Shown: piece by piece, positions 9,123 to 13,640 of the stretch
Layout: the number at the start of each line of letters is the position of its first letter
How positions within the stretch are numbered: the first letter of the stretch is position 1
Source: an uncultured Methanobrevibacter sp.
GTDB lineage: Archaea; Methanobacteriota; Methanobacteria; Methanobacteriales; Methanobacteriaceae
Direction: 5' to 3'
DNA: 64,000 bases
Assembly (NCBI GenBank): GCA_902774685.1
Contig: CACYJH010000011.1
Span: 23,814 to 87,813, forward strand
Notes under the pieces: generated by a model
What the model saw: only the letters and a program-made list of their open reading frames with translations
The model's database searches: none
Told to the model about the DNA's origin: nothing
Program-made: the position numbers and the translations under genes

Positions 9123-10376
9123 ATGTTTGAAGACATTCCAATAAAATTCTTTAAGGGAACTCATAGAGTGAGAGACCCAAAGGAAACAATTGAAATAAAC
9201 GAAGACAAGCTAAGAACTGCAGGGATAACCAGATTAACTGACATTACAGACCTTGACAGAATCAAGATCCCAGTGTTTTCTGCAATTCGCCCTACTGCAC
9301 AGTCAGGAAGTGTAAGCGTCTATGCTGGAAAGGGAGCCACAAAAGAACAGGCTAAGGCATCAGCAATGATGGAAGGGTTTGAAAGATACTCTGCAGAAAG
9401 GCAAGACATTGATGGTGAAAGAACCTTTGTAGACACCTACAACAACATCAAGGATACCAAAAATGTTCTTGACCCTAAAGACCTTCTCTTGCCAAAGAAT
9501 TACGGCAATGAAAATGTGGAAAATTCAAGGCTTGAATGGATAGAAGCAGAGGACATCATAAGTGAAGAAACAATATATGTCCCATCAAATGCAGTTTTCC
9601 ACCCATATATTCCTACAAGGGAAGTAAGTCCTAGCCCAATAGCTATTTTTAAAGGAAACACAAATGGTCTTGCATCTGGAAACATCATAGAGGAATCCGT
9701 TTTGCACGGCATCTTTGAAGTTGTAGAAAGGGATGCATGGAGCATTTTTGAACTTACCAAAAGAAACAAGAAGGAAATCAGCCAAGAAAATATCGATAAT
9801 GAAATAATCAATGATCTTTTAGACAAATTCCATAGCCAAGGAATTGATATTAAGCTAATGGACATCACAGCAGACCTTAAGATTACAACCGTAGCTGCAA
9901 GTGCTGATGATACCGTCCTTAAGGATCCTGCACTTTTGACCTTAGGTGTTGGAACTCATTTGAACCCAGAAGTTGCTGTTATCAGAGCATTGACTGAAGT
10001 TGCACAAAGCAGGGCAACCCAAATTCATGGAACCCGTGAAGATACAATAAGAGCGGATTTCATGAGAAAATCAGGCTATGAACATATGAAAAGGATGAAC
10101 AGACATTACTTCCAAAGGGAAGAAGAAACAATTGATCTTTCAGACATTGAGGATAAAAGTTCACATTCCATCAAAAAGGATATTGAAACAAGCATTGAAG
10201 AGGCACAAAAGGTTGGATTCAATCAAATACTATACACTGACCTTACAAGAGATGAAATCGGAATCAATGTTGCAAGAGTAATCATTCCAAAGGCAGAACT
10301 GTATTCATTGGATGAAGAAAGATTAGGTAACAGGGCTTTGGAATATGATAGAAAAGCACGTAGAGGATTGGTTTAA
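9123..10376 (+). CDS. ycaO: YcaO-type McrA-glycine thioamidation protein
   Basis: A 417-residue YcaO cyclodehydratase-superfamily protein. YcaO proteins activate a peptide amide with ATP. In methanogens the YcaO/TfuA pair converts a glycine of McrA (methyl-coenzyme M reductase) to thioglycine. Visible family features include SGSVSVYAGKG, a Glu-rich helix KASAMMEGFERYSAER and LHGIFEVVERDAWSIFE, which provide ATP- and magnesium-binding carboxylates. The C-terminal region has GINVARVIIPKAEL. tfuA follows 71 bases downstream, the standard partnership, and a larE-like gene lies after that. AAGGAT upstream is the likely ribosome binding site. Confidence 0.93.
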   Translation: MFEDIPIKFFKGTHRVRDPKETIEINEDKLRTAGITRLTDITDLDRIKIPVFSAIRPTAQSGSVSVYAGKGATKEQAKASAMMEGFERYSAERQDIDGERTFVDTYNNIKDTKNVLDPKDLLLPKNYGNENVENSRLEWIEAEDIISEETIYVPSNAVFHPYIPTREVSPSPIAIFKGNTNGLASGNIIEESVLHGIFEVVERDAWSIFELTKRNKKEISQENIDNEIINDLLDKFHSQGIDIKLMDITADLKITTVAASADDTVLKDPALLTLGVGTHLNPEVAVIRALTEVAQSRATQIHGTREDTIRADFMRKSGYEHMKRMNRHYFQREEETIDLSDIEDKSSHSIKKDIETSIEEAQKVGFNQILYTDLTRDEIGINVARVIIPKAELYSLDEERLGNRALEYDRKARRGLV

Positions 10377-10401
10377 GCCGATGAATTTAATTCATTAGGC
10401 T
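10376..10401 (+). promoter_or_regulatory. intergenic hairpin between ycaO and tfuA
   Basis: AGCC at 10376-10379 pairs with GGCT at 10398-10401, and ATGAA with TTCAT inside, giving an imperfect stem that overlaps the ycaO stop region. No T-run follows, so it is more likely an RNA-processing or stability element within the transcript than a terminator. Function is inferred. Confidence 0.35.
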
Positions 10402-10447
10402 AATCCCATTATTAATTAATCTAATTTAATTTTATAGAGATTTTAAA

Positions 10448-11083
10448 ATGAGCAAGAAGATCATAGTTTATTTAGGGTTATCCATTTTAGAGGATGAAGC
10501 AAAAACCATATTGGATGCTGACTATAGACCTCCAGTGAAAAGGGGAGACATCCTAAAGGCAATCAGCGAAAAGCCAGATGTTATAGGAATTATCGATGGT
10601 GCATTCCACCACACCCCTGCAGTTGCACATAAGGAAATCATGAAAGCATTGGACAAGGGAATAACTGTAGTTGGTGGAAGCAGTATGGGAGCTTTAAGAG
10701 CATCAGAGCTTGATGACCTTGGAATGGTTGGAATCGGTTATGTCTACAAAGCATACAGATCTGGACAAATAACATCAGATGATGATGTGGCCCTTAGCTT
10801 TGACCCTGTAAGAAATGTGCCAATATCTGAAGCTCTTGTAAATGTCGACTACAAATTGGATTTGGCAGTTAAGGAAGGAATAATCACAGAAGATGAAAAG
10901 GATTACATCCATGACATTGCCAAAGAGATCTATTATCCTAAACGGTCTTACCAAAACATATTCTCCAAAGTGGAAATGGAAGATGCTAAGAAAACCAAGC
11001 TTATTGATTTTGTATTGAAGGAAAAGGACATCAAATATCGGGATGCAATTGAAGTCTTGGAATACATAAAAAACTTAAAATAG
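10448..11083 (+). CDS. tfuA: TfuA-related McrA-glycine thioamidation protein
   Basis: A 211-residue TfuA-family protein. The family core is visible: YLGLSILEDEAKTILDADYRPPVKRGDI at the start, GIIDGAFHHTPAVAHKEIM, and VVGGSSMGALRASEL with its small-residue loop. TfuA proteins partner with YcaO in thioamide formation and are thought to deliver or activate sulfur. Together with the upstream ycaO this gene identifies the McrA thioglycine system. The start ATG has only a weak AGAG upstream. An imperfect hairpin separates it from ycaO. Confidence 0.92.
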   Translation: MSKKIIVYLGLSILEDEAKTILDADYRPPVKRGDILKAISEKPDVIGIIDGAFHHTPAVAHKEIMKALDKGITVVGGSSMGALRASELDDLGMVGIGYVYKAYRSGQITSDDDVALSFDPVRNVPISEALVNVDYKLDLAVKEGIITEDEKDYIHDIAKEIYYPKRSYQNIFSKVEMEDAKKTKLIDFVLKEKDIKYRDAIEVLEYIKNLK

Positions 11084-11243
11084 CCTTATTTTAAAATATA
11101 ACGTTGATATAGAAAATTTTAAAAGCAATAAATAATATAACAATAGTTAATTTATTATTTTTTATATGATATGATAATTTAATTCGGGCGATTAATCAAT
11201 AATTAATAATAAATTGTTAATTATTTTGTAAAAGAGGCCAATT

Positions 11244-12308
11244 ATGAATATAAATGTCAAAATCAACAGAGTTAAAGAAATATTAAAGGATAAAAAGATA
11301 GCTTTAGCTTTTTCTGCTGGGGCAGATAGCACATTGCTTGCATACCTTGCAAAGGAAGCTGGCGCAGATGTGCTTGCAATCACCTATGACAATCAGATTT
11401 TTCCAAGTGGATTCTTGGAATTTGCAAAAAAAAGAGCAGATGAAATTGGAATAAGACATGAAATTATTGAAAATAATTTTCTTGATGTAGATGACATAGT
11501 TGATAATACCCCTCAAAGATGTTTAGTGTGCAGAAGATTAATGTATGGTGCAATTAAACAAAAGGCTAATGAAGAAGGTTATGAAATAATCATAGACGGA
11601 AACAATATAACAGACCTTACTCATGATAGGCCTGGGATACTCATGAAATATGAGTATGAAATTGAAAGCCCATTCATTGATGCCGAACTTGAAACATATG
11701 AAATTCATCAATTCCTTGAAGAAAACAATATTCCTTACTCCAAGTCAACAACCTGTCTTGCAACAAGAGTCAAGACAAATGAAACCGTCACAATCGATAA
11801 GGTCAATAGAATCGATTATTGTGAAGCTTTCATAAAAGAGAAAACAAATTCTGAAGTTGTGAAACTTAGGGAAGAGAATAATGTAGCCACCATTGAAATG
11901 GAGAATATTGAAAAGATTTTAGATAATGAAACTATCAATACCATTTTCAATGAACTTAAATCAGCACAATATGATAAGGTCCTATTGAATCTTAAATCTA
12001 TTGAGGATAATGATAATCTCATTGAAGACAATGAGCTTGAAAAAGGAGCAAACAATCTTATCTTAAGGAAAAGATTGCCGTTTGGCATAAACATTTCAGA
12101 AACTGCTGAAATAATTCAAGAGAATAAGAATGAGCATCTAAGCAATATAGAACCAAATGAGGAAATAGGCTACATTAAATTGAATGTTGATGAAAAAGAG
12201 TCTAAAATATTCCGTGATGGAAAAATAAGCATTGAAAACAATAAAAACAAGGAAGATGCAAAAGAATCTTTGGTAAAGATATTGCCACTCATTAGAAGAA
12301 CTGTTTAA
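11244..12308 (+). CDS. LarE-like ATP-dependent sulfur transferase
   Basis: A 354-residue PP-loop ATPase of the LarE type. The PP-loop is FSAGADST at residues 23-30, with Ala in place of the usual second Gly. Three cysteines occupy the positions expected for the [4Fe-4S]-type LarE: C93 and C96 in QRCLVCRR and C171 in TTCLATR. Residues 195-250 match the LarE C-terminal region. About 95 further residues (260-354) form an extension I cannot assign. LarE enzymes donate sulfur to the nickel-pincer cofactor. Here, 160 bases after tfuA on the same strand, a role in sulfur supply for McrA thioamidation is an attractive inference. AGAGG lies upstream of the ATG. Confidence 0.8.
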   Translation: MNINVKINRVKEILKDKKIALAFSAGADSTLLAYLAKEAGADVLAITYDNQIFPSGFLEFAKKRADEIGIRHEIIENNFLDVDDIVDNTPQRCLVCRRLMYGAIKQKANEEGYEIIIDGNNITDLTHDRPGILMKYEYEIESPFIDAELETYEIHQFLEENNIPYSKSTTCLATRVKTNETVTIDKVNRIDYCEAFIKEKTNSEVVKLREENNVATIEMENIEKILDNETINTIFNELKSAQYDKVLLNLKSIEDNDNLIEDNELEKGANNLILRKRLPFGINISETAEIIQENKNEHLSNIEPNEEIGYIKLNVDEKESKIFRDGKISIENNKNKEDAKESLVKILPLIRRTV

Positions 12309-12389: not shown

Positions 12390-12929
12390 CTAATTACTAT
12401 TTTTCTCTCTTTGCTGTCTTGCAAATTCCTTAAATGACATCTTCTTTTCAGTTGGTATGTTCTTTTCAACTAATTTTTCTACTTTTGAATCGCTTTCTCT
12501 CCAGTCTTCAACTTCAGATTCATTGCTGTTTAGAATATTTATCTTATCCAAAATGCCTTTTGAGTATTCCTCTTTTGATGAAAGCCCTTTTAAAGCAAGT
12601 ATTTTACCATCTAAACGTAGGTTTTGGTCATCTGCCTTGACTTCCTGAAGATGAATCTCAAATCTGCTTGCCTGACTGATTTCATCATCGGTAATAAGAT
12701 TGTATTTTAAAAAGAGATTTTCATGTGGAATGACCTCATTCACAGTTCTTTTGACTGAAGACTCAAAAAGATCCACCAAGTTTTCAATGACTGGAAGACC
12801 ATTGTCCCAATAATAAGCAAGAATGACGCTTAATTGGATTTCATGTTCAGAGAATTCCTCTCCAACTCTTGCTCTTATACCAATTGTTGAATCATTATCC
12901 TTTATAACTAAAATAGGTTCTTCAGACAT
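12390..12929 (-). CDS. hypothetical protein
   Basis: A 179-residue soluble protein I do not recognise. The first 120 residues look like a compact alpha/beta domain (ILVIKDNDSTIGIRARVGEEFSEHE and onward). The last 60 are charged and helical, with a basic end (FKEFARQQREKNSN). There are no membrane segments, cysteines or nucleotide-binding motifs. GTGAT lies 4 bases upstream of the ATG, and the reading frame has normal gene-like composition, so it is a real gene. It is convergent with the larE-like gene. Function unknown. Confidence 0.65.
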   Translation of the reverse strand: MSEEPILVIKDNDSTIGIRARVGEEFSEHEIQLSVILAYYWDNGLPVIENLVDLFESSVKRTVNEVIPHENLFLKYNLITDDEISQASRFEIHLQEVKADDQNLRLDGKILALKGLSSKEEYSKGILDKINILNSNESEVEDWRESDSKVEKLVEKNIPTEKKMSFKEFARQQREKNSN

Positions 12930-13280
12930 TTTATCACATGAAAAATAAAATATTTTAAAAAATTAAATTATAAGATTAAATTATAAAATTGAATACTAAA
13001 ACATTTATTGAAACTAGTATAAATATTTTAAAATTAAAAAATAGAAAAAATAACTAATAAAATAGTACAAAAATGTTAAGTGAATTCTAAAAAGAATTCA
13101 AATAACACCAAACAAGTCAATTTTAGGACTAATAATAATCCATGAATATAATATAAATTTTTTTGTATATAAATTTACTGAAAATTTAGAAAAAATGACA
13201 TAATATTAAAAAGGAAAAGTCCACCTAGGAAAATTTCAACCTAACTTTTTTTACCATGGGATTTTATTATTAGGATATGA
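12930..13280. other. non-coding region downstream of the membrane micropeptide
   Basis: AT-rich region holding a 7-bp stem hairpin at 13082-13101 (TGAATTC / GAATTCA). It also has a TCCACCTAGGA segment near 13220 resembling an anti-Shine-Dalgarno sequence. On the minus strand it lies 3' of the 24-residue ORF and 5' of the hypothetical gene. Apart from those, nothing recognisable. Confidence 0.4.
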
Positions 13281-13355
13281 TTATTCAATGAAAATTAAAA
13301 TAAAACTAATTATTGCACTAAGCAATAACAGAAAAAATTTTAATGACCATTCCAT
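13281..13355 (-). CDS. 24-residue membrane micropeptide with a perfect ribosome binding site
   Basis: A short ORF in an otherwise empty 770-base gap. It begins MEWSLKFF, continues as an unbroken hydrophobic helix of about 16 residues, and ends FIE before TAA. GGAGGTGAT, the full complement of the 16S rRNA 3' end, lies just before the ATG on the minus strand, a better site than those of most larger genes here. A single transmembrane helix flanked by charged residues resembles small regulatory or toxin-like membrane peptides, but no family is recognised. The upstream leader can form two competing hairpins, one covering part of the ribosome binding site. Translation is inferred; conservation in related genomes would settle it. 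Confidence 0.6.
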   Translation of the reverse strand: MEWSLKFFLLLLSAIISFILIFIE

Positions 13356-13361
13356 AATCAT

Positions 13362-13414
13362 CACCTCCTAAAAATTAGACTTGTTTGTAAATTTTTTAGG
13401 TGGCGAAACCTAAA
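13362..13414 (-). promoter_or_regulatory. switch-like leader with mutually exclusive hairpins upstream of the micropeptide
   Basis: On the minus strand the leader contains TTTAGGT-TTCGCC-ACCTAAA (13395-13414), a 7-bp stem. The same ACCTAAA arm continues into AAATT (13390-13400), which can instead pair with AATTTTTAGG (13367-13376), the start of the ribosome binding site region. The two structures cannot coexist, so one would expose and the other partly hide the site. This is an inferred RNA switch or attenuator; the ligand or trigger is unknown. Confidence 0.45.
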
Positions 13415-13640
13415 GACATATTTGATTTTTAAAATTAATAAAACTTTCTAAAAATGCTCTAATTATAAAATTAAAGCAATTTTATAATTTAAAATTAATT
13501 TATAAGATAATTACTATCCTATATTAAAATTAAAGCAAAATTATGTAATAAAAATAATATTCCAATTAAATTACAAGATTATAAAAAATAGTAAAGATTA
13601 ATATAAAAATTAAAAAATAGATACTAAAATAAAAAAAAGA
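13415..13640. other. AT-rich gap between the micropeptide leader and the CBS gene
   Basis: No coding signal. TATA-like sequences suitable for leftward transcription of the micropeptide lie near 13460-13485. A short motif (AATTAAAGCAA) occurs twice, near 13471 and 13529. Confidence 0.35.

What the first reader, a model, noticed from the sequence alone, without database searches (positions are those of the whole stretch)
13281..13414. Unannotated 24-residue membrane micropeptide with a perfect ribosome binding site and a switch-like leader
Seen directly: an ORF of 24 codons on the minus strand, almost entirely hydrophobic between charged ends, with GGAGGTGAT (full complement of the 16S 3' end) just before its ATG, inside a gap with no other genes. 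Its leader holds TTTAGGT/ACCTAAA, and the ACCTAAA arm can pair alternatively with the TTTTTAGG that begins the ribosome binding site region. Inference: translation of a small membrane peptide is controlled by a two-state RNA. It could be a toxin-like or regulatory peptide. Too short for standard gene callers, so it may be undescribed.
Basis: partly seen in the sequence, partly recalled or inferred. Interest (0 to 1): 0.75.

Follow-up and report, generated by a model that had tools for sequence, protein, structure and literature searches.

The report
Archaeal membrane toxin with RNA antidote
A gut methanogen carries a tiny gene for a 24-residue hydrophobic, likely toxic peptide, and close by a second, likely transcribed small RNA gene whose sequence matches the first gene's ribosome binding site and changes together with it from copy to copy, so the pair is predicted to work as a toxin with an RNA antidote, a kind of system that the papers searched report only from bacteria.

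Summary
The 24-codon ORF (13281-13355, minus) belongs to a multicopy Methanobrevibacter family. I tabulated 26 modules in 10 of 19 genus genomes, 25 with an intact toxin ORF. In 26 of 26 the RNA's best local target is its own toxin's ribosome binding site, although the recognition letters differ (cognate mean -26.8 kcal/mol; between subfamilies -9.8). Where modules share a genome, the cognate RNA is best in 23 of 23 rows. Five RNA genes stand without a toxin, two at the window's own locus. The mRNA leader pairs with the mRNA's 3' end with compensatory changes (131 of 138 cells). This is the anatomy of a bacterial type I toxin-antitoxin system with a hok/aapA-like closed mRNA; my searches found none reported from archaea. 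Toxicity, transcription and repression are inferred.

The parts
13434..13443 (-). TATA-like box of the peptide mRNA, about 30 bases before the leader hairpin
   Evidence: most of the 26 upstream segments show an AT-rich TATA-like box at similar spacing, judged by eye; no transcript data
13395..13414 (-). Leader hairpin TTTAGGT/ACCTAAA near the predicted 5' end of the mRNA; its 3' arm alternatively pairs with 13221-13227
   Evidence: 91.2% of cells paired; pairing with the 3' end covaries
13364..13387 (-). Antisense target: CAAACAAGTCTAATTTTTAGGAGG, spacer plus Shine-Dalgarno
   Evidence: best local target of the small RNA here and in the other 25 tabulated modules
13360..13368 (-). Shine-Dalgarno GGAGGTGAT
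   Evidence: GGAGG or GGGGG in all 23 tabulated T1-T4 modules (whose script looked for that pattern)
13281..13355 (-). 24-codon hydrophobic peptide gene, the likely toxin
   Evidence: 24 codons in 22 of 23 T1-T4 modules (the script preferred the start giving 24 where it had a choice), the other being frameshifted; pN/pS below 1
13215..13252 (-). 3' hairpin of the peptide mRNA (AAAAGTTAGG..CCTA..ACTTTT, by eye) that leaves TAGGTGG (13221-13227) to pair with the leader arm
13166..13173 (-). TATA-like box of the small RNA
   Evidence: in the toxin-less loci of G015 and G004 conservation begins about here
13069..13143 (-). Small antisense RNA gene, the predicted antitoxin: 5' hairpin 13126-13141 that holds the anti-Shine-Dalgarno UCC, recognition stretch 13108-13127, 3' hairpin TGAATTC/GAATTCA 13081-13100, U-rich end

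Best explanation
The peptide gene and the small RNA gene close to it are most likely a type I toxin-antitoxin module of an archaeon: the RNA is reverse-complementary to the peptide's ribosome binding site and would block its translation, and the hydrophobic peptide would likely damage the cell membrane when the RNA is lost. Shown from sequence: the conserved 24-codon frame, the second gene with its own TATA-like box, the locus-specific complementarity that diverges together on both sides, RNA genes without a toxin, one frameshifted toxin copy, and compensatory pairing between the mRNA's two ends. Inferred: (1) both RNAs are transcribed; (2) the full-length mRNA folds its 3' end back on its leader and is kept inert or stabilised, as in hok and aapA mRNAs; (3) the small RNA opens from its 5' hairpin, pairs with the spacer and Shine-Dalgarno and stops initiation or triggers decay; (4) the peptide inserts into the membrane and is toxic; (5) each copy has drifted to a private recognition sequence, so that co-resident modules hardly silence one another.
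For: Models built on one partner found the other. A model of the small RNA alone (R1) gave 17 hits in 9 of 138 family genomes, 9 of them new; 5 of the 9 lie beside a gene of the peptide family, 3 have no peptide gene in the flanks read, 1 (G016 C56) lies too near a contig end to tell. The expanded model R2 added 12 further loci in the 19 genus genomes: 8 with 24-aa peptides, 2 with 39-aa peptides, 2 without. A leader-to-start-codon model (R3) gave 24 hits at E up to 1.5e-6, 10 new; all 24 precede a 24-aa-family ORF (one frameshifted) and 23 of 24 have the RNA, the other ending at a contig edge. Over 26 tabulated modules cognate duplexes average -26.8, non-cognate between subfamilies -9.8 (sd 3.3, n=552); 0 of 100000 shuffles as low; within T4b, whose peptides are nearly identical, 2 of 5040 permutations as low, namely the true pairing and a swap of two identical RNAs. 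In 26 of 26 the best target within the local same-strand flanks is the cognate ribosome binding site; in the whole window, both strands, no site outside the RNA's own locus scores better. In the 7 genomes with two or more tabulated modules the cognate RNA is best in 23 of 23 rows, the strongest other match being -21.9. At the window's own locus G015 and G004 keep the RNA from TATA-like box to terminator while the toxin is gone. Fold-back: 131 of 138 cells paired against 111.0 (sd 3.2) in shuffles, 0 of 20000, three of six pairs changed on both sides. Own genome: four modules, contigs C11, C10, C30 and C1.
Against: No transcript, translation or toxicity data. Duplex energy alone is not exceptional: 137 ribosome-binding-like sites in the window average -19.4 for their best nearby match, GC-rich ones reach -27.0, and the peptide's own site is not among the 15 strongest listed. 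The 26 modules were tabulated because both partners had been found. The cognate RNA is not the strict best in 6 of 26 rows (five T4a with near-identical RNAs, and G016_C100); T1, T4a and T5 permutations say little. The T6 RNA was located by eye through its complementarity. ViennaRNA gives the 5'-3' fold-back a mean pairing of 0.38 or more in 15 of 26 mRNAs and 0.02 or less in all six T4a, and does not show that it hides the Shine-Dalgarno more than the truncated form does. The small RNA's own hairpins show no both-sided change in the first 8 sequences. No DNA match on plasmids or phages, so a mobile-element role is unsupported. Most genomes are drafts.
Confidence: 0.72

Rival explanations
1. 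The peptide is a harmless small membrane protein, for example a subunit or stress regulator, whose translation is tuned by a dedicated small RNA; there is no toxin.
For: Nothing here shows toxicity; the paired small RNA and the covariation would look the same. Peptides are under purifying selection.
Against: Up to five different copies per genome, each matched best by its own RNA, five RNA genes kept without a peptide gene in the flanks read and one frameshifted peptide with its RNA present: these fit a toxin better than a subunit.
Confidence: 0.18
2. One long transcript: the antisense stretch is part of the same RNA and folds back in cis as a riboswitch-like element.
For: In T1-T3 the RNA gene starts 193-225 bases after the peptide's start codon on the same strand, so read-through is possible.
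Confidence: 0.05
3. The small RNA mainly regulates other genes in trans, and its match to the peptide mRNA is secondary.
For: Copies exist without a neighbouring peptide gene.
Against: The recognition stretch changes with the neighbouring peptide's leader locus by locus, which shared trans targets would forbid; in the window no other site scores better. Whole genomes were not scanned for targets.
Confidence: 0.03

Closest known systems
hok/Sok (plasmid R1 and E. coli chromosome)
   Same: Hydrophobic membrane toxin; antisense RNA that binds a ribosome binding site in the toxin mRNA; mRNA activated by 3'-end processing and refolding; chromosomal homologues, many of them decayed (passages of PMC8309996).
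   Different: Archaeal; 24 aa instead of 52; the RNA gene is a separate same-strand gene; no family match (Pfam and NCBIfam). A mok-like overlapping frame was not looked for.
aapA/IsoA (Helicobacter)
   Same: Several chromosomal copies, small peptide, full-length mRNA closed by a 5'-3' long-distance interaction, metastable hairpins (passages of PMC6733600).
   Different: IsoA overlaps the toxin gene on the opposite strand; here the RNA is encoded apart on the same strand, downstream (T1-T3, T5, T6) or upstream (T4).
tisB/IstR-1, ibs/Sib, Fst/RNAII and zor/Orz (recalled, apart from tisB/IstR1 named as trans-acting in PMC8309996)
   Same: Very small membrane peptides (Ibs about 19 aa, recalled) under RNA antitoxins, some encoded apart from the toxin.
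   Different: Bacterial; other gene arrangements (recalled); no family match.
CreTA (haloarchaea, type VIII)
   Same: RNA-based toxin-antitoxin known from archaea (passages of PMC9458426).
   Different: There the toxin is an RNA and the antitoxin guides CRISPR Cascade to the promoter; here the toxin would be a peptide and the RNA matches its mRNA. CRISPR elements were not looked for near the modules.

Membership tests
Type I toxin-antitoxin | Toxin gene codes for a small protein, usually under 60 aa and hydrophobic | tested here: met
   24 aa (T1-T4), 25 aa (T6), 39 aa (T5); hydropathy 1.09 to 2.35 for the six 24-25 aa peptides checked, 0.18 for the one T5 peptide checked
Type I toxin-antitoxin | Antitoxin is an RNA complementary to the toxin mRNA | tested here: met
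   Complementarity in 26 of 26 tabulated modules, co-diverging
Type I toxin-antitoxin | The antitoxin RNA is a separate transcript | tested here: inconclusive
   Own TATA-like box, terminator-like end, copies without a toxin; no transcript data
Type I toxin-antitoxin | Peptide is toxic when made without the RNA | not testable with these tools
   Needs induction in a laboratory strain
Type I toxin-antitoxin | RNA represses toxin translation or triggers mRNA decay | not testable with these tools
   Needs reporter or in vitro translation
hok/Sok family | Peptide matches a curated family such as Hok | tested here: not met
   0 Pfam and 0 NCBIfam families at E up to 10 for 8 peptides; very short peptides score poorly against such models
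hok/Sok and aapA/IsoA mechanism | mRNA 5' and 3' ends pair | tested here: met
   131 of 138 cells over 23 T1-T4 modules, both-sided changes at three of six pairs; thermodynamic support in 15 of 26
aapA/IsoA | Antitoxin overlaps the toxin gene on the opposite strand | tested here: not met
   The RNA gene is on the same strand at a distance
CreTA | Antitoxin resembles CRISPR repeats and needs Cascade | not tested
   No repeat search was run for this purpose

The most novel reading that the evidence does not exclude
The first type I toxin-antitoxin family in Archaea: a multicopy family in rumen and gut Methanobrevibacter that independently reached the closed-end toxin mRNA of hok and aapA, in which each copy carries its own private antisense code, co-resident copies are mutually insulated, and RNA-only remnants persist as free-standing antidotes.
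Probability: 0.62. Interest if true: 0.92.

Novelty: new variant of a known kind. Interest (0 to 1): 0.86.

Why it matters
PMC12390103 (passages) says that type I systems had been found only in Proteobacteria, Firmicutes and Tenericutes, and adds one from cyanobacteria. A natural archaeal family, with 26 cognate pairs in many sequence versions, would show that this regulatory plan arose or spread beyond bacteria, would give a ready data set on how antisense codes co-evolve and stay insulated inside one cell, and would offer a candidate peptide that acts on the membranes of methanogens that live in livestock.

Tried and rejected
(b) A chance ORF (conservation). (c) Known plasmids or phages (no DNA match at 1e-5); the two viral contigs that matched the RNA's hairpin pattern look by eye like unrelated coding DNA. 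(d) Other genera: three R2 hits at E about 0.2 lie by eye in coding DNA; none of the other 119 family genomes gave a convincing hit, but searches of more than 40 genomes ran with stricter filters and divergent subfamilies would be missed. (e) A known RNA family (0 Rfam matches at gathering score in the window) or protein family. (f) Raw duplex energy as proof (not exceptional). (g) Covariation inside the small RNA: on the first 8 sequences its hairpins were too conserved to test. (h) Weaker R3 hits: of five looked at, L119 is a true module (T6), L117 a possible one without a standard start codon, L118 a different small peptide, L120 and L121 ordinary genes; the other weak hits, a list that was cut, were not read. 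A weak R3 hit in the window at 2634-2684 is an ordinary gene's start. (i) In one search my pattern picked the wrong leader hexamer for one row; one search repeats it correctly. (j) I had first counted G016 C56 as an RNA without toxin; its contig ends 134 bases upstream, so it is left open.

Full report
OBSERVATION. The peptide is MEWSLKFFLLLLSAIISFILIFIE. The gap lies between a CBS-domain gene and a gene without a Pfam family.

RELATIVES. A DNA search of 80 genomes and a closer comparison of seven fetched stretches gave eight full modules (window, G009 twice, G005 twice, G002 twice, G008) and one cut by a contig end (G010). All nine carry a 24-codon ORF. Conserved blocks lie outside the ORF too: the leader hairpin; a 3' block AAAAAAGTTAGGTT..TCCT.GRTGG.CTTTTCC; a TATA-like box; and a block GGATT..TCC..GAATTC..GAATTCA..TAAC that starts 193-225 bases after the start codon, 214 in the window.

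THE SECOND GENE. That last block is a small RNA gene. Its stretch GTCCTAAAATTGACTTGTTTGG is reverse-complementary, with small bulges, to CAAACAAGTCTAATTTTTAGGAGG, the spacer and Shine-Dalgarno of the peptide. ViennaRNA folds it as a 5' hairpin that holds the anti-Shine-Dalgarno UCC, an open recognition stretch and a 3' hairpin before a U-rich end.

INDEPENDENT TEST. A covariance model made only from the RNA (R1) was run on 138 family genomes: 17 hits in 9 genomes, all in one genus. Eight were the training loci. Of the 9 new, 5 lie beside a gene of the peptide family (one frameshifted), with complementarity; 3 have no peptide gene in the flanks read (up to 420 bases before, 500 after); 1 (G016 C56) has 134 bases before the contig ends, so it cannot be judged. 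The expanded RNA model R2 gave 30 hits in 10 of 19 genus genomes, 12 of them further loci: 8 with 24-aa peptides, 2 with 39-aa peptides, 2 with none in the flanks read; one of the 30 is the reverse strand of a palindromic hairpin. The model R3 of leader to start codon gave 24 hits at E up to 1.5e-6, 10 of them new. Eight of those 10 coincide with R2 hits, and for the other two the RNA was seen upstream in the sequence.

CATALOGUE. I tabulated 26 modules in which both partners were found: T1 3, T2 4, T3 3, T4a 6 (one with a frameshifted ORF), T4b 7, T5 2 (39 aa), T6 1 (25 aa). They lie in 10 of the 19 genus genomes. Measured start to start, in T1-T3, T5 and T6 the RNA gene follows the peptide's start codon by 187-233 bases; in T4 it precedes it by 286-361 bases. 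Left out of the table: G010 C2 (contig end), G009 C1:487k (no standard start codon), five RNA genes without a toxin (G015 C75, G004 C26, G009 C2:171k, G016 C88, G006 C16, the last with what looks like a remnant of the toxin mRNA's 3' end) and G016 C56 (contig end). The RNA of T6 was located by eye through its match, so it is not independent. The genome of the window has four modules (C11, C10, C30, C1).

SPECIFICITY. RNAduplex energies of each leader against each RNA: cognate mean -26.8; between subfamilies -9.8, sd 3.3, n=552. The cognate RNA ranks first in 20 of 26 rows; five of the other six are T4a rows, where all RNAs are nearly alike, and one is G016_C100. No shuffle of 100000 reached the observed sum. 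Counting the true pairing itself, within T2 1 of 24, within T3 1 of 6 and within T4b 2 of 5040 permutations are as low; T1 (2 of 6), T4a (720 of 720) and T5 (1 of 2) say little. Within each of the 7 genomes with two or more tabulated modules the cognate RNA is best, 23 of 23 rows; the strongest non-cognate match there is -21.9, in G002. Scanned against its own same-strand flanks (981 to 1661 bases), each RNA's best target is its own toxin's ribosome binding site, 26 of 26. In the whole window, both strands, no site outside the RNA's own locus scores better than that site, -29.2. Raw energy alone would not have shown this: of 137 ribosome-binding-like sites the best reach -27.0, and the peptide's own site is not among the 15 strongest listed.

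CLOSED mRNA. The leader arm pairs with a hexamer near the mRNA's 3' end: CCACCU/AGGUGG (window and T3; UGGUGG in the other two T1), CCAUCU/UGAUGG (T2), CUACCU/AGGUAG (T4a, one AGGUGG), AUAUCU/AGAUAU and ACAUCU/AGAUGC (T4b). Over 23 T1-T4 modules 131 of 138 cells pair, against 111.0 (sd 3.2) when the 3' parts are shuffled, 0 of 20000; three of six pairs change on both sides (one search had one row wrong). The elements were cut out with patterns written after looking, and many rows are related, so the shuffle is a guide, not a probability. T5 and T6 were left out of this count. ViennaRNA gives the pairing a mean of 0.38 or more in 15 of 26 full-length mRNAs and 0.02 or less in all six T4a, and the Shine-Dalgarno is not consistently freer in the truncated form, so the on-off sense of the fold-back is inferred from hok and aapA.

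TOXIN LOSS. At the window's locus 14 of 19 genomes have the downstream gene. Near it the RNA is found in 4 (G000, G009, G015, G004) and the leader in 2 (G000, G009) of the 14; in G010 the gene sits at a contig start, so that one is open. In G015 and G004 the sequence is conserved from about the TATA-like box of the RNA through its terminator while the toxin part is absent. This argues that the RNA is a gene of its own, and that the toxin can be lost while the antidote stays. G006 C101 has its RNA with a frameshifted peptide.

SELECTION AND NAME. pN/pS of the 24 codons is below 1 in the five subfamilies tested (T1-T4b), least clearly in T2 (0.64). No Pfam or NCBIfam family matches the 8 peptides given; no Rfam family matches the window. 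Records with the RNA's strict hairpin pattern are all Methanobrevibacter drafts (5 of 5 stretches from four genomes): RUG748, RUG11428, RGIG2528 (goat jejunum) and Rep2_Bin008; their contig lengths equal those of G008, G004, G015 and G005.

LITERATURE. Searches showed no archaeal type I system in the listings I saw; I did not open most of the listed papers. PMC12390103 (passages) states that type I systems had been found only in Proteobacteria, Firmicutes and Tenericutes, and adds one in cyanobacteria. PMC6523106 (passages) reports antisense RNAs to type II systems in Halobacterium. PMC8309996, PMC6733600, PMC9458426, PMC6563280 and PMC4147584 were seen as passages only. The type I database paper PMC8594479 was not held.

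WEIGHING. That a paired RNA controls this peptide is, on the co-divergence, very likely. That the peptide is toxic rests on analogy and on the pattern of copies, losses and RNA-only loci. I therefore file it as working like a type I system, with membership open on three untested points: transcription, repression and toxicity.

Noticed in passing
L118 (G002:C33), minus strand, R3 match at locus 918-980: A different small hydrophobic peptide (MGEAVSIISCISLVITALFAVLRFMQEK) with a GGGGGTG ribosome binding site and, right after its stop codon, a hairpin-like TAGGGGGTAAATCCCCTA whose CCCC could pair with that site.
   Followed up: no
L117 (G009:C1:487566-487624): A possible further subfamily, by eye: leader CACTCC and 3' GGAGTG could pair and a downstream CTTGAAAATGGG matches the leader, but the long hydrophobic frame has no ATG, GTG or TTG start.
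   Followed up: partly
L083 (G016:C10) and L079 (G002:C45): Sister subfamily T5 with 39-residue peptides, found by borderline RNA-model hits (E 0.06 and 0.09), so the family probably reaches beyond these models.
   Followed up: partly
L055 (G004:C26) and L131: At the window's locus in G004 what looks by eye like the end of an unrelated coding sequence directly abuts the toxin-less RNA's TATA-like box.
   Followed up: partly
window 9123-12308 (+): YcaO, TfuA-like and PP-loop (QueC/ThiI-type) genes in a row; recalled: YcaO-TfuA pairs thioamidate methyl-coenzyme M reductase.
   Followed up: no
window 12390-12929 (-): A conserved 179-aa protein without a Pfam family, found in 14 of 19 genus genomes.
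   Followed up: no
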